IMG/VR virus record: IMGVR_UViG_3300033388_002580
Location: 1-44,584 of that record
DNA from: a virus
Length of the DNA stretch: 44,584 nt
Reading direction: 5' to 3' (one strand)
Shown: positions 9,692 to 35,604 of the stretch, piece by piece
Position numbering within the stretch: the stretch's first letter is position 1
Layout of the letters: the number at the start of each line of letters is the position of its first letter
Position numbers and translations under genes: made by a program
Notes under the pieces: generated by a model
Databases searched by the model: none
Told to the model about the DNA's origin: nothing
Seen by the model: only the letters and a program-made list of their open reading frames with translations

Positions 9692-11527
9692 TTAAGTCCT
9701 GATGATGTAGTTACAAGTCTGGTAAGGCTGCATATTATTATGTGCAGCATCGCCGCCAGTAGACTCGCCTGCCCCTGGAGTATCTGATAATGCCTCGGCT
9801 GGACCAGTAGCCCTTGGTGTACCGGCATCAGCTACCCAGTTAGGATGGGTATGCGCGGCCAATTCGCTTTCTGTCAGAGTATGATCTTCCGCACCGCTGG
9901 CCTGCCCTATATTGTCGCCCTCAGTCGAGGTATTCCGGTTAGCCGAAGAACCGCCCATATTATCGGCACCTGTTGGAATACGACCCCGCATATCCGGCAT
10001 CTGGAAGTCGCCATGTATGGAATGAGTGCCTGAACCTGTATCGGTGATATCGACAGCCCCGCCGCCTATCGTGGTTTCTACCTGAATCGTATTGTCATCA
10101 ACATAAATAGCGTAATACTTTGTTAAAGCCGATAGTCCTGCCGGGAGCGCCCCGCCTGAGTTCGAGAGGTGACATACGTCGTTATCTACCAAACCGTGAG
10201 TAGTGGCTGATATCTGATCTGTTGCCGCTGTTGCTGTGAAGGTATTAATAGCTGTTGGCAACCCCCAGCCATTTGCATCCTGATCTGAGAGCAATACATC
10301 GAATAAACCTTCGTAGGTCGTGGCACTCTTTTCGTCACCATCACAGAACAAGTACCCAGTAGGTTCTGTAACACCTGCATATGGGAATATTGATCCCGTT
10401 GGGATTTGGGAAGCTGTCGCCAAACCATCCGCTCGTTTATGGTCGAGCATTTCCCATCTTGCAACACCACCGGAAGGATCGTCGTATTCAAAGAACTCGA
10501 AAATATCACCAGCCGCTGAGGTAATATTTGCCCCGGCATTTTTCAGAATCATGTTGGTCGCATGATGTGTAAATACCATGGCAGTTGCAGTGCGGAACTT
10601 AACTATCGTGCCTTTACCCCGTGAGGATATGGCTGTAGCAGCTACGGCACCAGTTACCTCAAAGAAATCACCAACTCCTGGCAGGACCAAGGTAGCAGCA
10701 GAGGCAATATCATCACCTACCTGGAAGAAAGGCTTAATGACATCGTGGACCACAAAGTTATCGAATATGACATTGCCAGGTGTTATGTCAGACGGGTCAC
10801 AGCCCTTAATCTGTAGCTTGTAAAAACGGGCATCCGAAGGGGGAACGACGTACCCGGTGAACGGTGTCTTTGTCGTGGGGTTGGCCGCGGCTTCGTCGTA
10901 GACCGTAGACGTCGGTGTGCTGCTTGCCGCTTCGGTTTCGGTATACCACTTGAAATTGATAATGTTGCGTATGTCTACAACGCTGGATACCTGATTAAAA
11001 TACCATTGCTTCGGTTTGTTCGGGGTACATTCGTAGAACTTACCGCTTAACCAGTCAGAACCACCCGACCCAGTAGAGGTACATTTTAAGCCCCCCGCGC
11101 CGTGTATCGGATCAGACGTGTTTCTCTGGTTATCCGCTGCTGCCCCATACAAGGCACTTCGTACCCAGTTATCCGGTATGCCGTCACTGTCGCCATCGGC
11201 CTCGAGGCTACCGTTCAGTAGTTCGTTAATGGTCTGTATCAGGCTGGCGGTTTGTCCTGTCGGGGCATAATCATCAACCGACCAGATTTCGACATCGTTC
11301 TCATCTACCAGCTTGACGGTGTAAGTGCCTTCCCACCAGATTTCCTTTTCCCCGCGAGCGTCAAATATGATCGGGTTCGCATGTGATGCGGCTTTAGCCT
11401 GATCTTGCCAAGTTTCTTTGTTGGTGGTGGTGCCGTTCTCGTAGGTGTGTAGTTTCCAACCAACAGCCGGGGTGCCGTCTATTTGTGGAAACCCCATTAC
11501 GGGCAATGGTCTGAGTTCTGCTGTCAT
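9692..11527 (-). CDS. Tail fibre / spike with collar domain
   Basis: The 611-residue protein has three parts. The N-terminal 90 residues (MTAELRPLPVMGFPQIDGTP onward) resemble a virion-attachment module of podoviral fibres. The middle region (about 95-380) is beta-rich with Asp/Asn-rich loops (EADGDSDGIPDNW) that look calcium-binding. The C-terminal collar-like domain starts at PTGSIFPYAGVTEPTGYLFC and continues with MPDMRGRIPTG and TESELAAHTHPN, ending in NMQPYQTCNYIIRT. That ending is typical of phage tail collar receptor-binding proteins. It is probably the host-recognition fibre, and it shares one base with the upstream adaptor gene. Confidence 0.8.
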   Translation of the reverse strand: MTAELRPLPVMGFPQIDGTPAVGWKLHTYENGTTTNKETWQDQAKAASHANPIIFDARGEKEIWWEGTYTVKLVDENDVEIWSVDDYAPTGQTASLIQTINELLNGSLEADGDSDGIPDNWVRSALYGAAADNQRNTSDPIHGAGGLKCTSTGSGGSDWLSGKFYECTPNKPKQWYFNQVSSVVDIRNIINFKWYTETEAASSTPTSTVYDEAAANPTTKTPFTGYVVPPSDARFYKLQIKGCDPSDITPGNVIFDNFVVHDVIKPFFQVGDDIASAATLVLPGVGDFFEVTGAVAATAISSRGKGTIVKFRTATAMVFTHHATNMILKNAGANITSAAGDIFEFFEYDDPSGGVARWEMLDHKRADGLATASQIPTGSIFPYAGVTEPTGYLFCDGDEKSATTYEGLFDVLLSDQDANGWGLPTAINTFTATAATDQISATTHGLVDNDVCHLSNSGGALPAGLSALTKYYAIYVDDNTIQVETTIGGGAVDITDTGSGTHSIHGDFQMPDMRGRIPTGADNMGGSSANRNTSTEGDNIGQASGAEDHTLTESELAAHTHPNWVADAGTPRATGPAEALSDTPGAGESTGGDAAHNNMQPYQTCNYIIRT

Positions 11528-12483
11528 CAGTCTGTCCTGTCAGGTTGAAAGTACATCTCAACTTCCTCTGGTCCTGCTTGTTGCGCCAGTATAAGGGAGT
11601 TTGTAGCATTGTCCTTCATTTCTTGCGTCACCGGTTTGCTGAACATGGGCGCGATCTCAAGCATCAGATTCCATTTTATCGCCCGATGATATTTCGGCGG
11701 GAAGTCTGCGGTGTCTGTTGCGGCATCGAAGTCAGAGAAGGGCCGGCGTATTACCATCCTGACCTTTGTGTTATTGGGCAGATCGTCCGGGGCAAAGTTG
11801 AAATAAATACGCCCGTCTACCAACTCCCCCTCGTAATAATATTTATTCGGGGTACCCGCCTGATCCTTATCAATAATTGATTCGTAGTCCTCACGAGTTT
11901 TATACGGCGTCATAACCAAGTCGTCGCCGTCATCTTCCCGTGTCATGGCTATTACGATTGAGGTAGGCCGCATGATCTTGGAGGTATAGGCGTATACTTT
12001 AGCGCCAGCCGAGGCCAGTGCTGTCGGCCCGGTTACAACCGTAACAACGTCTGATACAGGGGCGCCGCTTACTACGTCCCAATGGATCGAGCCGTTATCC
12101 ATCAGTACCCCGATAATGTCCGCATCGGCTATACCGGTATCGCTGGTTACGTCCCAAGTCGTGTCTGAGGACGCAGAATCGGCTGATAGGGTGGTTTCTA
12201 CGAATGAGGCAGTACAATGATCTCCTGTCGGGCCGAGCTGGTATTCGACCTGATCTTTCTGCAAGAACAGGGTCGCGGTCTTTCTGGCCCAGACTTCAAC
12301 CCCTGGGGATAGATTTCCCGGGCCTTGCCAAGACTGGATAAGCTGATTAACGCCATTGACACAACGCTGTATCTGGAAGGCGCTCGGGGCATTACCCTGA
12401 CCCAGCGCGCCGACACCATACAGAACTTCCTCGAAAAGCTTGTTCCGATTCAGTTCGAAGTCGAAAGAATTAGAGACGGCCAA
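11527..12483 (-). CDS. Head-tail adaptor (P22 gp4-like), with inserted beta domain
   Basis: The 318-residue protein has an N-terminal helical bundle (LFEEVLYGVGALGQGNAPSA and LIQSWQGPGNL) and a C-terminal part ending in PPKYHRAIKWNLMLEIAPMF, as in gp4-type tail accessory factors. Between them lie about 120 residues of beta-rich sequence (about 85-200). P22 gp4 is only about 166 residues, so this looks like a gp4-type protein with an insertion. Its place directly before fibre and gp10 genes fits an adaptor bound to the portal. It overlaps the upstream fusion gene by 14 bp. Confidence 0.65.
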   Translation of the reverse strand: MAVSNSFDFELNRNKLFEEVLYGVGALGQGNAPSAFQIQRCVNGVNQLIQSWQGPGNLSPGVEVWARKTATLFLQKDQVEYQLGPTGDHCTASFVETTLSADSASSDTTWDVTSDTGIADADIIGVLMDNGSIHWDVVSGAPVSDVVTVVTGPTALASAGAKVYAYTSKIMRPTSIVIAMTREDDGDDLVMTPYKTREDYESIIDKDQAGTPNKYYYEGELVDGRIYFNFAPDDLPNNTKVRMVIRRPFSDFDAATDTADFPPKYHRAIKWNLMLEIAPMFSKPVTQEMKDNATNSLILAQQAGPEEVEMYFQPDRTD

Positions 12484-14131
12484 TCGCTTTATCTCCTACG
12501 TGCTGATATTCCAGCCATTGGTGGTAATGCTCCATAATGGCATTGAAGATCATGTCCGGGGTGGTATGGGCTACGCAGCTTGCTACCTTGCTTTCCTCGC
12601 TAAACAGCTTCACCCCGTCAATCTCGTTGGTCACAGCCAGTCTCTCACAGAGTTCGTCCGTCATTGGGATCGTGGTACAGCGCGAAGTCCCGTAGTGCAG
12701 CATGTGACAGGGGTAGCATGGAGTCTCTGATACCGGGGGATGCAGGGCAATGGTATTGATCCAGTGCTTTGTCAGGTTTTCCTCGCTGGAATGCGACAGG
12801 TAACAGACCTTTGGTACTGGTTCGCAACCGACCGCATTGAGTAGGCCAGTCTCGGGGCCTACTACCAGATCGACATGATGGACAAAGGCCATGGACTTAC
12901 GGATGGGCCACATATCGCTACGGGCAAAGACGCGGGGTTCTTCTTCCCAGCCCTTCTCAAATACCTTACCGCGCTCCCCGCTGAGGATAACGATACCGAT
13001 ATCCGGGGTGGCGCTAAGTATCTTGGATATGACCTGATCCACGTATGGGGTTTCTTTGTGCAAAGACCCGCCAGATACCGCCCAGACCATGATAAACACG
13101 TCATCAGGGAATGTATCGCGTTCTTTGGTAGCCCACTTCGTTTCTTCCTCGGTGGCGTAGAATCGCTGTTCTGGGGCTTTAAACGGGACTTCTGCCAAGG
13201 TATGCAGGAACTCCATATAGTTGATATCCATCAGCTTATGGCGCACTGCTTGGTTCCAGTTGCTCTCCCTGCGATTTGGCATGGCCAATAACGAGCCTTC
13301 AACCGATTCCGACAGATTAATGAACTTGTCGAACTTCTTTTCCCAACAGTCCCAAAAATCCCCGAGTCGTTCATTCGGTACCTGATCGACATCTTGGATA
13401 AGGAAGGCATCAATGTTGGGGTCATGCTTCGCAACCGATGCCCCGCGGGGGGTGGTCATCAGGGTGATGTGGTAGCCCTGTTTCTTTAACCCGGGGAAGA
13501 CGCTGGATGTCTGGATCATGTCGCCAAAGGCACCATATCTCACGACACAGCAGGTCTTTATCGGGGTAGGATCATTACATGAATATAGGTGTTTATTGTG
13601 GGTGAACTTCTTGAACACCATGTAAAATGAATACTCATTCCCCCTCTGGCCGGGGCCGTTATCGTGGTCACGCAGTTCGTTCTCAACCAAGTCCCATCCC
13701 CCGACATCTTCCATCAAACGGATTACTTTCTTCTGGCTAAGGTTGCTTTTGTGGTCAGGGTTAGCCCCTTCCTCACCAACCTTCGGATACAGCTTTTCAT
13801 CAGGCAAATACAAGACTAAATAGCCGCCGGGCTTGATAACCCTCATCCATTCCCTGAGTGCTTTTCCTGGATCAATAAGGTGTTCCAACAAATGGGAACT
13901 GAATACAAAGTCCAGGGAATCAGTAGCAAACAAATCAAGTTCATCACAGAGACAGTTGATATCCGCGACCCGGCTGCCGCCGTACTGCTTCCCGCTATCT
14001 ACCCCGATAAAGTGGTTAAAGGCTTTATAAACACCACTCCCAAGATCAAGCCCCTTACCTCGGGTATAGGGGACGATATCCCACATAATCTTGGATGCCT
14101 CGTTGCATTGGGGGTCTGAAATACGCCACAT
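12470..14131 (-). CDS. SAM methyltransferase - GT9 glycosyltransferase fusion
   Basis: From the ATG at 14131 the protein has 553 residues; this start lies one base after the upstream stop, while a start at 14164 would lie inside the upstream gene. Residues about 1-175 are a class I SAM methyltransferase: motif GLDLGSG near 27-33, FVFSSHLLEHL, and WMRVIKPGGYLVLYLPDE. Residues about 185-520 resemble a GT-B glycosyltransferase of family 9 (heptosyltransferase type): CVVRYGAFGDMIQTSSVFPG at the start of the first Rossmann fold, then IGIVILSGERG, and HVDLVVGPETGLLNAVG, the nucleotide-sugar site. It may build a methylated sugar on the virion or alter the host surface. The C-terminal Cys/His-rich piece (CYPCHMLHYG) is unexplained. 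Confidence 0.75.
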   Translation of the reverse strand: MWRISDPQCNEASKIMWDIVPYTRGKGLDLGSGVYKAFNHFIGVDSGKQYGGSRVADINCLCDELDLFATDSLDFVFSSHLLEHLIDPGKALREWMRVIKPGGYLVLYLPDEKLYPKVGEEGANPDHKSNLSQKKVIRLMEDVGGWDLVENELRDHDNGPGQRGNEYSFYMVFKKFTHNKHLYSCNDPTPIKTCCVVRYGAFGDMIQTSSVFPGLKKQGYHITLMTTPRGASVAKHDPNIDAFLIQDVDQVPNERLGDFWDCWEKKFDKFINLSESVEGSLLAMPNRRESNWNQAVRHKLMDINYMEFLHTLAEVPFKAPEQRFYATEEETKWATKERDTFPDDVFIMVWAVSGGSLHKETPYVDQVISKILSATPDIGIVILSGERGKVFEKGWEEEPRVFARSDMWPIRKSMAFVHHVDLVVGPETGLLNAVGCEPVPKVCYLSHSSEENLTKHWINTIALHPPVSETPCYPCHMLHYGTSRCTTIPMTDELCERLAVTNEIDGVKLFSEESKVASCVAHTTPDMIFNAIMEHYHQWLEYQHVGDKAIGRL

Positions 14132-14132
14132 A

Positions 14133-14474
14133 CTATTCTTCGTCCGGCATTGGGGCATTAACAAGCCGGTTTAACAACGTATCCCGGTCATCGTTCTTGC
14201 CGTATTTCACCTTGCGCTGGGTCAGAACAGCTTTGATTTCCTTCTTGCTGAGGTAGTCGTTCTGGTTGGCATCGACAACGATTCCACGTTTTTTCGGGGG
14301 GACATAGCTTGGATCGTCACCCACATGCTGCCCCATCTGGTTAAAGTATTTACCGCCTTGCTCATACTTCACGACAGAATGACCGCATACCTGATGGAAC
14401 GCTAGTTCTGAGTCAAACTTGTGCTTTGAGTTAGGGATGGGTTTGGATTGTGGTGTGATGTCACTGATGTCCAT
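14133..14474 (-). CDS. Small HeH/SAP-like domain protein
   Basis: The 113-residue protein has a C-terminal helix-extension-helix-like stretch (YLSKKEIKAVLTQRKVKYGK then RDTLLNRLV). This resembles the HeH/LEM fold found in small phage head proteins. The N-terminal half is unassigned. The start has a good ribosome binding site (GCGGAGAACAAT then ATG). It sits just after the head genes and one base before the fusion gene. It may be a head completion or decoration factor. Confidence 0.55.
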   Translation of the reverse strand: MDISDITPQSKPIPNSKHKFDSELAFHQVCGHSVVKYEQGGKYFNQMGQHVGDDPSYVPPKKRGIVVDANQNDYLSKKEIKAVLTQRKVKYGKNDDRDTLLNRLVNAPMPDEE

Positions 14475-14780: not shown

Positions 14781-15161
14781 TTACAGCGTATGAACTGCGG
14801 TCTGTGCTGCTTCGTATTCCATTACGATCTCAGCCGCGCCCGTGGCATCCGCCAGGGAACGTACCTCGAAACTGCCTTGTGCCGGTATGGCAGCATTCAG
14901 CACACTACTGGAAACCTGCACGGCAGCCGCGCCGGTTCCAAGGAGAATGCTGGCAATTGAGGTTGTGCCGTTGTAGATGTCGTAGCCGTGTGTCGTCACA
15001 GTACCCGCGACTGCTACGGTAGCGTGTACCGCTTTCAGTACCATTGCCTGAAAGTGGCGCCGCTTGCCGAGTGCCGTAGTGGCTCCTGCAACTGCGTTGA
15101 TGAAATGCTCTCGACGTACTACCCGATTTGGGTGGTCATAAGAAACTCCGCCTGTAGCCAT
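14781..15161 (-). CDS. Putative head decoration / stabilisation protein
   Basis: The 126-residue protein lies directly downstream of the coat gene and just before a terminator. An N-terminal basic part (NRVVRREHFINAVAGAT) is followed by a beta-sandwich-like region rich in A, V, T and G (ATVAVAGTVTTHGYDIYNG). The size, composition and position fit a capsid cement protein. The ribosome binding site is good (GAGGAAAGGAAA then ATG). Homology to a named decoration family is not certain. Confidence 0.6.
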   Translation of the reverse strand: MATGGVSYDHPNRVVRREHFINAVAGATTALGKRRHFQAMVLKAVHATVAVAGTVTTHGYDIYNGTTSIASILLGTGAAAVQVSSSVLNAAIPAQGSFEVRSLADATGAAEIVMEYEAAQTAVHTL

Positions 15162-34031: not shown

Positions 34032-34838
34032 TTACACACCGCACATCCCCATACATTCCTCAGAAAATCCAAGCTGGCCATGATCTTCCGGGCTCATTAG
34101 GTCAAGCTCCTCAAGCGGGATACATTCCCTGGTGAGGAAAAAATCGCCTTTTTCTCCGCCCTTCTTCCTCATAGCGCGATCAAACTCAATAGCGTCCTGC
34201 CATTCTTCGGGGTAATTTTTCTTCAACTCTGCCCACTCTTTCGGGCCTTTATAGGGACAGCCAATACAAGCCGACCTCGGAAGTGGACGGTTATAATGCT
34301 TCTCAAACCACTTAATGCAATGGAAGCGAGTCATATTTGATGGGTCAATCAGGGGATATTCAAAGTCATACCACCAGTCTTTTGAGATCGTAGCTCTGCG
34401 GGATTCATCGGAACTAATGCCTTTCCATACCGTGACTGGCTCTCCTTTGTAGCGTTGGCCTTTTTCAAGTCCCAAGAGGCTCCTGCGGATAAATTTATTA
34501 ATCGGCTTAATCTTGTAGTGGTTAGTACACTGACGACGAATCATTCCTATTTTCCCGTCTTTCTTCGTACGGTAGGGAATCATTACAGGAGATTTCCCGT
34601 TTCTCATTTCCGAGTGGACCTCGTGATCTCTCAGATTACCCTCGGAAACAACGTGGACAGGGATGCCGTATTTCTCAGACTCGGCTTTCAACCAATCAAA
34701 ATGCTCATACACAGCTTTCGGTTCCCAGCCAGTATCAGCGAATATGGCACAGTCCAGCTTAGGCAATTCGCCTTTGCAGGACATCAAAAGTAGGGTGGTG
34801 CTTTGAACTCCTGCACCTAATGATAGTATTTTCAACAT
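34032..34838 (-). CDS. PAPS-reductase-like / PP-loop protein
   Basis: From ATG 34838 (SD-like AGAGGT upstream, overlapping the previous stop as TGATG) the protein has 268 residues. The PP-loop is LSLGAGVQSTTLL near residue 5, followed by AIFADTGWEPKAVYEHFDWL. Cysteine motifs QCTNHYKIKP and ACIGCPYKGPKEW occur later. This matches the phage branch of the phosphoadenosine phosphosulfate reductase family, whose members adenylate or sulfur-modify nucleic acids or act in sulfur transfer. The exact substrate is unknown; neighbours are a DNA methyltransferase and thyX. Confidence 0.75.
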   Translation of the reverse strand: MLKILSLGAGVQSTTLLLMSCKGELPKLDCAIFADTGWEPKAVYEHFDWLKAESEKYGIPVHVVSEGNLRDHEVHSEMRNGKSPVMIPYRTKKDGKIGMIRRQCTNHYKIKPINKFIRRSLLGLEKGQRYKGEPVTVWKGISSDESRRATISKDWWYDFEYPLIDPSNMTRFHCIKWFEKHYNRPLPRSACIGCPYKGPKEWAELKKNYPEEWQDAIEFDRAMRKKGGEKGDFFLTRECIPLEELDLMSPEDHGQLGFSEECMGMCGV

Positions 34839-34951
34839 CAGATATACCTCTGTGCTATTATCTGTTTCGTATCTATCCCATGGATACACATTTTTACTCC
34901 TTTGATGTATTGATCGGCCCGGTCTAATCCCCCGGGCCTTTCTTTGTTCAT
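34838..34951 (-). CDS. Small coupling protein between methyltransferase and PAPS-reductase-like gene (37 aa)
   Basis: ATG 34951 overlaps the methyltransferase stop (ATGA), and its stop overlaps the next start (TGATG). The peptide starts MNKERPGGLDRADQYIKGVK. An internal ATG at 34891 has an excellent site (CAAAGGAGTAAAA) and would give a 17-residue form. Either way it is a short leader-like cistron. A GC-rich stem (GGCCCGG / CCGGGCC, about 34917-34939) lies inside it. Confidence 0.5.
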   Translation of the reverse strand: MNKERPGGLDRADQYIKGVKMCIHGIDTKQIIAQRYI

Positions 34952-35604
34952 TCAAACATCCTGCCTTGTCGTTGTGCTTGGTCTATTCGTTCACAAGCTA
35001 TATCGAAGTATTTGGGCTCTATTTCAATTCCGATGAATTTACGGCCAAGATTCATACAAGCTACGCCGGTGGTGCCGGAACCCATGAATGGATCGAATAT
35101 AGTTTGTGGCTCTGATTTGCACTGTTTAATCACCCACTCCATGACAGCGATAGGTTTTTGTGTTGGATGTACCCGTAATTGATCGCGCTCACTGTCTTTA
35201 AGCATTCCATTCCATAAATGTGTTATTAATCTTGCTGATCCACCTTGTTTTTTCCAAGCAAGCTCGCAATCACTATTATTATTTTGTGCCATACCAGCAC
35301 GTTTATCCCATATTAGCCAGCAAGCCGATGGCGGGAGTTTGTCTGCATAGTGATTTGCACCAAATAAAACTACCTCTGGGAAAGACAGCCAAGGCTCTGG
35401 ATTAAATGCCTCTGTATCACCGGCTATTACAGCATAGTCCCCTCGAACATACTTCCCTTTTCCTGTTGGTGATTTATAACCTATCCCATAAGGCGGATCA
35501 GTAATCACTGCGTCTACTTTATCCAGGGTCGGCAATATCTCAAGGCAGTCACCTAGATAAAGCGTAGCGTTTCCAATTATTTCTTTTGTCCCACTACTCA
35601 TCAT
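34948..35604 (-). CDS. DNA adenine/cytosine N-methyltransferase (beta class)
   Basis: The 218-residue protein has DPPY at residues 36-39 followed by FDPFMGSGTTG at 170-180. This order (catalytic motif before SAM motif) is that of beta-class N6-adenine or N4-cytosine methyltransferases. VHPTQKP lies before the SAM motif as usual. It has no nuclease partner, so it probably protects phage DNA from restriction or regulates it. It overlaps the upstream small membrane-protein gene by 11 bp. Confidence 0.85.
   Translation of the reverse strand: MMSSGTKEIIGNATLYLGDCLEILPTLDKVDAVITDPPYGIGYKSPTGKGKYVRGDYAVIAGDTEAFNPEPWLSFPEVVLFGANHYADKLPPSACWLIWDKRAGMAQNNNSDCELAWKKQGGSARLITHLWNGMLKDSERDQLRVHPTQKPIAVMEWVIKQCKSEPQTIFDPFMGSGTTGVACMNLGRKFIGIEIEPKYFDIACERIDQAQRQGRMFE

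What the first reader, a model, noticed from the sequence alone, without database searches (positions are those of the whole stretch)
12470..14131. Methyltransferase fused to a GT9-type glycosyltransferase inside the tail operon
Seen: a 553-residue gene with SAM motifs (GLDLGSG, then a post-motif GGYLVLYL) followed by a GT-B/heptosyltransferase-like half (VRYGAFGDMIQTS ... VVGPETGLLNAVG). Known: GT9 enzymes add heptose or related sugars in LPS biosynthesis. Inference: it may build a methylated sugar on a virion part or alter host LPS to exclude competitors. A fusion between head and tail genes is unusual.
Basis: partly seen in the sequence, partly recalled or inferred. Interest (0 to 1): 0.7.

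Follow-up and report, generated by a model that had tools for sequence, protein, structure and literature searches.

The report
Capsid-linked methyltransferase–sugar-transferase fusion
This phage gene makes one protein that joins a methyl-adding enzyme to a sugar-adding enzyme of the heptosyltransferase type, and it sits behind the capsid gene in hundreds of uncultured phages but in none of their lab-grown relatives, which suggests that these viruses put a sugar, often methylated, on their own particles.

Summary
Window 12470-14131, on the MINUS strand, encodes a 553-aa protein. Its N-terminus is a class I SAM methyltransferase and its C-terminus a GT-B, GT9-type glycosyltransferase. The AlphaFold model (pLDDT 94) matches GT9 structures: 3tov, WaaF, WaaC and TibC. 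The fusion is not a rarity. At least 583 IMG/VR loci carry the family. It almost always lies between the major capsid protein (MCP) and the head-tail adaptor: 124/130 loci have the MCP upstream. In a sample chosen by MCP alone, 27/27 loci with enough sequence carry it. GT and MCP distances correlate (Mantel r=0.83). No full-length member was found in 50,697 deposited phages. The nearest cultured relatives (PTXU04, Bas95, Vibrio 219E41, 1.232.O) have the same operon with an 'empty' site. The glycosyltransferase is the constant part. The methyltransferase is fused in most members, a separate neighbouring gene in some, and decayed or absent in others, over many independent changes. Best reading: a virion-glycosylation enzyme that modifies a capsid or other virion protein, with a methylated sugar where the MTase is intact. 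Enzyme class and operon linkage are shown here; acceptor and donor are inferred. Host LPS modification remains possible but is less favoured.

The parts
12470..14131 (-). MT-GT: methyltransferase-GT9 fusion protein, 553 aa
   Evidence: ORF, ATG to TAA; model pLDDT 94.2, pTM 0.91
13592..14131 (-). N-terminal class I SAM methyltransferase domain (about residues 1-180)
   Evidence: PF08241 Methyltransf_11 E 1.6e-10, above its cut-off; Foldseek hits to MTases such as 6f5z, 1vlm, 3l8d
14033..14053 (-). SAM-binding motif I, GLDLGSG (residues 27-33)
   Evidence: sequence; G25, G31, G33 and D45 nearly invariant over 81 relatives
12470..13570 (-). C-terminal GT-B / GT9-type glycosyltransferase domain (residues 188-553)
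   Evidence: Foldseek 3tov 3.5e-14, 1psw (WaaF) 6.5e-13, WaaC 1.3e-9, TibC 1.8e-7; hhalign to E. coli WaaF E 3.9e-5 over 300 columns; PF01075 in 12 of 42 relatives
13517..13540 (-). GT9 N-lobe motif RYGAFGDM with D204, the candidate catalytic base (residues 198-205)
   Evidence: R198, G200, G203, D204 invariant in 81 sequences; aligns with WVGDMM of WaaF; equivalent of TibC Asp110 by family (PMC4358343)
13055..13060 (-). H358-K359, donor-phosphate/sugar-binding Lys equivalent (GSSxHKxWP in the family)
   Evidence: K359 invariant; aligns with KRWP of WaaF
12845..12859 (-). GPETG motif (residues 425-429), equivalent of the DSG/DTG loop of WaaF/WaaC
   Evidence: E427 invariant; aligns with NDSGLMH of WaaF
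12575..12718 (-). four-cysteine element C472-x2-C475-x9-C485-x33-C519 (plus H476, H479), candidate metal finger
   Evidence: four Cys invariant in 81 sequences; E. coli WaaF lacks it; TibC has an Fe finger Cys339/342/358/370
14133..14474 (-). small conserved protein directly upstream of MT-GT; in cultured relatives its homologue directly precedes the adaptor (the empty site)
   Evidence: HMM hits PTXU04_00014 E 1.5e-14, Bas95_0017 E 2.5e-17, Vibrio homologues E about 1e-13
14781..15161 (-). probable capsid cement/decoration protein, candidate acceptor (inference)
   Evidence: all-beta model pLDDT 89; weak Foldseek matches to capsid proteins of phages Pam1 (7eel_H) and GP4 (8h89_J), E 5e-3 to 7e-3; positional equivalent in PTXU04, gp12, is a virion protein by peptide fingerprinting (PMC6563267)
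15239..16183 (-). major capsid protein
   Evidence: phrog_1357 E 4.3e-18; 52-57% identical to MCPs of PTXU04-like and Vibrio podoviruses
11527..12483 (-). head-tail adaptor (SU10-adaptor-like), next gene after MT-GT
   Evidence: PF24175 E 3.7e-5, just below its cut-off; phrog_12985

Best explanation
MT-GT is a late-expressed virion-glycosylation enzyme. The GT9-type half uses a nucleotide sugar from the host (ADP-heptose or a related donor) and transfers the sugar to a virion protein made from the same operon, most likely the capsid cement protein or the major capsid protein. D204 would be the catalytic base, and K359 and the E427 loop would hold the donor. The N-terminal SAM methyltransferase then, or beforehand, methylates the sugar; variable neighbour genes (TylF-type O-methyltransferases, GT2, GT4) elaborate the glycan in some members. 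The four-cysteine element is probably a metal finger that helps oligomerisation or acceptor binding, as in TibC. Shown here: enzyme folds, catalytic-motif conservation, operon position, co-inheritance with the capsid, clade-specific presence, linked MTase genes. Inferred: late timing, protein acceptor, donor sugar, methylation of the sugar, metal, and any benefit (stability, adsorption, shielding).
For: GT9 fold and motifs. MCP upstream in 124/130 loci, and adaptor start within 30 bp downstream in 71/90 loci where an adaptor was found. Sample chosen by MCP alone: 27/27 loci with at least 6 kb downstream have the GT. GT-MCP Mantel r=0.829 and GT-portal r=0.861, against an MCP-portal yardstick of 0.929. 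GT presence needs only 4 changes on the MCP tree, shuffled mean 17.2. Cultured relatives lack the gene in their whole genomes but share the same operon. The gap between MCP and MT-GT holds TylF sugar O-methyltransferases (10 of 64 proteins scanned), GT2, GT4 and FkbM. In 9 GT-only loci (some near-identical contigs) the same MTase is a separate gene in the same operon. Precedent: tandem GTs downstream of an O-methyltransferase in cluster O mycobacteriophages modify capsid and tail-tube proteins (PMC11600133 citing Freeman 2023).
Against: No direct evidence of a glycan or acceptor. In E. coli the well-known GT9 enzymes act on LPS. The candidate cement protein is not found by HMM in every locus that has the GT. 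Operon position could reflect expression timing alone. The MTase is often decayed or absent, so methylation is not a constant part of the function.
Confidence: 0.56

Rival explanations
1. Host-surface modification: MT-GT adds a (methylated) sugar to the host LPS core or O-antigen during infection or lysogeny, blocking superinfection or stopping released virions from sticking to debris.
For: GT9 homologues WaaC/WaaF/WaaQ act on LPS, and TIGR02193/02195/02201 are the nearest NCBIfam models, hit by 10-16 of 42 relatives. Some carriers look like prophages in Paraburkholderia, with an integrase about 38 kb upstream of the GT. A cultured cousin, Bas95, depends on O-antigen (PMC11990801).
Against: The gene is fixed behind the capsid gene and co-inherited with it, and the gene order suggests late expression with virion genes; surface-modifying genes are usually accessory and expressed early or from the prophage (general knowledge). 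All hits to LPS models are below curated cut-offs.
Confidence: 0.22
2. Assembly factor: the protein is needed mainly as a scaffold or docking factor in head completion and the enzymatic activity is minor; repeated loss of the SAM motif with the N-domain kept would fit.
For: The N-domain without motif I is still under purifying selection: median dN/dS 0.118 over 9 pairs, mostly from one lineage. The motif was lost or gained on at least 10 branches.
Against: The GT catalytic residues are invariant in all 81 sequences, including those with a decayed MTase. The related Xuquatrovirus and Vibrio phages assemble without it.
Confidence: 0.09
3. DNA modification: the GT glycosylates a modified base in phage DNA.
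For: Phage GTs can glycosylate hypermodified bases (general knowledge; review text in PMC12619734). The window encodes a thymidylate synthase and a DNA methyltransferase.
Against: No base-hydroxymethylating enzyme was recognised among the window proteins scanned. The gene sits in the virion operon. The fold is GT9 with a TibC-like cysteine element.
Confidence: 0.04
4. Modification of a host protein, for example a defence or translation protein, by a secondarily recruited GT9 enzyme.
For: GT9-fold enzymes that use proteins as acceptors exist (TibC/AAH, PMC4358343).
Against: A near-universal place in the late virion operon and co-inheritance with capsid genes are not expected for a host-takeover gene.
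Confidence: 0.05

Closest known systems
GT9 heptosyltransferases (WaaC, WaaF; PF01075, TIGR02193/02195/02201)
   Same: GT-B fold; G-x-GD motif with catalytic Asp; H/R-K-x-WP Lys; D/E-TG loop
   Different: About 10-15% identity; fused to a methyltransferase; Glu instead of Asp in the D/E-TG loop; four-Cys insert that E. coli WaaF lacks; phage virion operon
TibC/AAH autotransporter heptosyltransferases (BAHT; PDB 4rap)
   Same: GT9-like core on Foldseek; four conserved Cys in the C-terminal lobe; acts on protein in TibC
   Different: N-terminal methyltransferase instead of beta-barrel; Cys spacing x2-x9-x33 instead of x2-x15-x11; TIGR04414 hit in only 1 of 42 relatives at E 0.15; protein acceptor and oligomer not shown
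Virion-glycosylation gene sets of mycobacteriophages (cluster O and others; Freeman 2023, cited in PMC11600133 and PMC12619734)
   Same: Glycosyltransferase plus O-methyltransferase in the phage genome; reported to modify capsid and tail-tube proteins
   Different: Separate genes in actinobacterial phages; here one fused GT9-type protein, fixed in a podovirus-like lineage whose known bacterial carriers are mostly Gram-negative
Xuquatrovirus PTXU04, Pondi, HelliStehle (Bas95) and Vibrio podoviruses 219E41 / 1.232.O
   Same: Same head operon: portal, MCP, cement-like protein, g14133 homologue, adaptor, head closure
   Different: No GT or MT-GT between the g14133 homologue and the adaptor, and none elsewhere in the four genomes searched

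Membership tests
GT9 glycosyltransferase (PF01075) | GT-B fold most like solved GT9 enzymes | tested here: met
   Foldseek top hits 3tov 3.5e-14, 1psw 6.5e-13, WaaC 1.3e-9
GT9 glycosyltransferase (PF01075) | catalytic Asp (GD), donor-binding Lys, D/E-TG loop | tested here: met
   D204, K359, E427 invariant in 81 sequences; aligned with WaaF motifs
GT9 glycosyltransferase (PF01075) | hit to the family HMM above its cut-off by the window protein itself | tested here: not met
   no PF01075 hit for P0001; 12 of 42 relatives hit at E up to 0.01, best 3.1e-6
GT9 glycosyltransferase (PF01075) | transfer of heptose or related sugar from a nucleotide donor | not testable with these tools
   needs biochemistry
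BAHT (TibC/AAH protein heptosyltransferases) | TIGR04414 model match | tested here: not met
   1 of 42 relatives at E 0.15
BAHT (TibC/AAH protein heptosyltransferases) | four Cys coordinating Fe in a finger in the C-lobe | tested here: inconclusive
   four invariant Cys at the equivalent end of the protein, but different spacing and no metal data
BAHT (TibC/AAH protein heptosyltransferases) | N-terminal beta-barrel domain | tested here: not met
   N-terminal domain is a class I methyltransferase
BAHT (TibC/AAH protein heptosyltransferases) | dodecamer, O-heptosylation of a protein | not testable with these tools
   needs biochemistry
Class I SAM-dependent methyltransferase | motif I and Rossmann-like fold | tested here: met
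   GLDLGSG, PF08241 1.6e-10, fold hits
Phage virion-glycosylation system | glycosyltransferase genetically tied to virion genes | tested here: met
   124/130 behind the MCP; 27/27 in the MCP-chosen sample
Phage virion-glycosylation system | glycan on a virion protein | not testable with these tools
   needs mass spectrometry of virions

The most novel reading that the evidence does not exclude
A large, hitherto uncultured lineage of podovirus-like phages carries a capsid-coupled protein glycosylation enzyme as a core gene: a GT9-type protein glycosyltransferase with a metal-finger-like element that decorates the capsid or its cement protein, with a SAM methyltransferase fused in front that has decayed many times into a retained non-catalytic docking domain.
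Probability: 0.35. Interest if true: 0.78.

Novelty: new variant of a known kind. Interest (0 to 1): 0.62.

Why it matters
Virion glycosylation in phages is known mainly from a few actinobacteriophages. Here a glycosyltransferase is nearly as constant as the capsid gene across hundreds of uncultured viruses, and is absent from their cultured cousins. That makes a clean natural experiment: the same operon with and without the enzyme. It also names bacterial genomes (Paraburkholderia rhynchosiae WSM 3937, Paraburkholderia sp. C35) that carry prophage-like copies, so the question of what phages gain by sugar-coating their particles could be tested directly. A fused methyltransferase that is repeatedly inactivated but kept is also a good case for studying how an enzyme domain turns into a structural one.

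Tried and rejected
(1) Search with the whole protein in viral contigs found nothing because the automatic peptide patterns fell on variable stretches; searching the conserved GT stretch found the family. (2) PF01075 on the window: no hit, first read as evidence against GT9; overturned by relatives, hhalign and Foldseek. (3) Recent horizontal acquisition: rejected; GC and GC3 of the gene are close to the operon's and its distances track MCP and portal. (4) CxxCH as a heme c motif: rejected, since some relatives have a longer spacing between the first two Cys. (5) BAHT membership: not claimed, as the TIGR04414 and N-domain tests fail. (6) Ser/Thr richness of the cement protein as acceptor evidence: dropped, because the equivalents in cultured phages without the GT are similarly Ser/Thr-rich. 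(7) My regex class 'degenerate' wrongly includes a few intact ones (L027, L033 read YDLGCG) and a truncated one (L014); corrected in the tree set. (8) The Mantel and tree tests use related, partly redundant contigs and a quick tree, so the numbers are indicative.

Full report
OBSERVATION. The window is a whole IMG/VR virus record of 44,584 bases. It is packed between a 113-aa ORF (14133-14474), whose stop is 1 nt before the ATG, and the adaptor ORF, whose TTG start overlaps its stop. Pfam gives Methyltransf_11 (1.6e-10) for the N-terminus; the C-terminal half has no Pfam or PHROG hit by itself.

WHAT THE TWO HALVES ARE. Over 81 aligned members 15 residues are invariant, all in the GT half: R198, G200, G203, D204, E278, L282, G354, K359, E427, H447, S448 and four cysteines, C472, C475, C485, C519. 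The AlphaFold model has pLDDT 94.2 and pTM 0.91. Its best PDB matches are GT9 enzymes: 3tov (3.5e-14), E. coli WaaF 1psw (6.5e-13), WaaC (1.3e-9), then TibC 4rap (1.8e-7), with class I methyltransferases for the N-terminus. Profile alignment to E. coli K-12 WaaF covers 300 columns (E 3.9e-5) and pairs GAFGDMI with WVGDMM, HKxWP with KRWP, and GPETGLLN with NDSGLMH. PF01075 is hit by 12 of 42 relatives, and heptosyltransferase I/II/III models by 10 to 16 of 42, below their cut-offs. So the domain is GT9-type by fold, motifs and homology.

THE CYSTEINE ELEMENT. The family pattern is C, then C-H after 2 or more residues, then x2-(L/M)-H-Y, then two further Cys. E. coli WaaF lacks it. TibC, a GT9-like enzyme that heptosylates autotransporter proteins, has an iron finger of four Cys (339, 342, 358, 370) needed for oligomerisation and activity, a catalytic Asp110 and Lys230 (PMC4358343). 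The likeness is suggestive, but spacing and N-terminal domain differ, and the BAHT model TIGR04414 is not met; I do not file the protein as a BAHT.

GENOMIC POSITION. In 130 loci with at least 5 kb upstream, 124 have the MCP upstream on the same strand; of 90 loci where an adaptor was found downstream, 71 have it starting within 30 bp. These loci were found through the GT, so I made a control chosen by MCP alone: of 80 loci, all 27 with at least 6 kb downstream carry the family GT, and all 12 whose MCP-adaptor interval is seen have it inside. One locus with 5.2 kb (L319) lacks it. GT distances track MCP (Mantel r 0.829, n 99) and portal (0.861), near the MCP-portal yardstick of 0.929. Base composition is close to that of the operon.

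THE EMPTY SITE. No full-length member was found in 50,697 deposited phages. The nearest cultured phages by MCP (52-57% identity) are Vibrio podoviruses 219E41 and 1.232.O and Escherichia phages PTXU04, Pondi and Bas95. They keep the order MCP, cement-like protein, small proteins, adaptor, head closure. The small protein next to the adaptor is a homologue of the window's 14133-14474 protein (E 1e-12 to 2.5e-17). There is no MT-GT between the two, and none in the four whole genomes searched. A second MCP-led scan seeded with PTXU04 found uncultured members of that GT-less group too. On an MCP tree of 126 rows GT presence needs 4 changes against 17.2 in shuffles, with 14 of the 18 GT-less rows in one clade. 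So the GT is a core gene of one capsid clade and absent in its sister.

THE METHYLTRANSFERASE IS THE VARIABLE PART. Among 206 non-redundant family proteins 122 have an intact fused MTase, 13 keep motif I only, 37 have an N-domain without motif I (a few misclassified) and 34 have none. On a GT tree of 160 rows the 'decayed' state needs 11 changes and 'absent' 12. In 9 GT-only loci, some near-identical, the same MTase is a separate gene in the operon, for example L174, where it ends at the first base of the GT. Fused or separate, the two travel together. Decayed N-domains are still under purifying selection (median dN/dS 0.118 over 9 pairs, mostly one lineage; intact N-domains 0.160; GT 0.065-0.115), which suggests a structural role besides catalysis.

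NEIGHBOUR GENES. Between MCP and MT-GT many relatives carry further sugar enzymes: TylF (macrocin-O-methyltransferase type) in 10 of 64 proteins scanned, GT2 in 5, GT4, FkbM and a radical SAM/SPASM protein. Two very long members (L023, L236; more than 1,000 aa) continue past the GT with about 520 more residues. This looks like a variable glycan-building island with MT-GT as the constant member. The protein right after the MCP (window 14781-15161) has an all-beta model (pLDDT 89) with weak matches to capsid-associated proteins of phages Pam1 and GP4. Its positional equivalent in PTXU04, gp12, was found in virions by peptide fingerprinting (PMC6563267). It is my first candidate acceptor, by inference.

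MECHANISM. Best reading: a host nucleotide sugar is transferred by the GT half to a virion protein, and the MTase methylates the sugar in members where it is intact. A precedent exists: in cluster O mycobacteriophages tandem GTs downstream of an O-methyltransferase modify capsid and tail-tube proteins (PMC11600133; PMC12619734 reports glycans on mycobacteriophage capsid and tail-tube subunits; both cite Freeman 2023, which I could not read). The LPS alternative stays open, since classical GT9 enzymes work on LPS and some carriers look like prophages: in both Paraburkholderia isolates an integrase lies about 38 kb from the GT. I prefer virion modification because the gene is nearly as constant as the capsid gene and sits in the virion operon.

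VERDICT. The thing is not a curiosity of one phage but a hallmark of an uncultured lineage. Novelty: a new variant of a known kind (phage virion glycosylation; GT9 enzymes). Interest 0.62.

Noticed in passing
window 14133-14474 (-) and homologues: Small conserved protein with an N-terminal motif like 'xDPxKPYGxVxGxxxxRYEQDGxxFDxxG' just before MT-GT or the adaptor, also in cultured Xuquatrovirus and Vibrio phages; C-terminal tails vary, some looking like LEM/HeH or C2H2 zinc fingers (L101, L009).
   Followed up: partly
L002, L007, L011, L013, L040, L060, L061, L063 between MCP and MT-GT: Family of small proteins with the motif 'LPPGxDIEDQExADIR', often two per locus, 50 members in 27 loci; no function known.
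   Followed up: no
L023:4962-8069 and L236:5905-9078: Family members of more than 1,000 aa: MTase-GT9 followed by about 520 residues that by eye look like a second glycosyltransferase and an FkbM-type methyltransferase.
   Followed up: no
L015, L019, L099, L121, L215, L250: Two family glycosyltransferases in one operon, in most cases one a divergent paralogue.
   Followed up: no
window 34032-34955 (-): Phosphoadenosine phosphosulfate reductase-like gene (phrog_424, E 4.6e-47), an auxiliary metabolic gene.
   Followed up: no
window 11527-12483 (-): Adaptor protein has no tblastn match in 50,697 deposited phages, although the MCP does.
   Followed up: partly
L105 and L106 (Paraburkholderia): Apparent prophages of this lineage in two Paraburkholderia isolates, integrase about 38 kb from MT-GT in both; completeness not checked.
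   Followed up: partly
L377, L319, L413, L385: Loci with an MCP close to the window's (64-68%) but no GT seen; L377, L385 and L413 show an MCP-adaptor interval without it, L319 may be cut short. Possible secondary losses.
   Followed up: no
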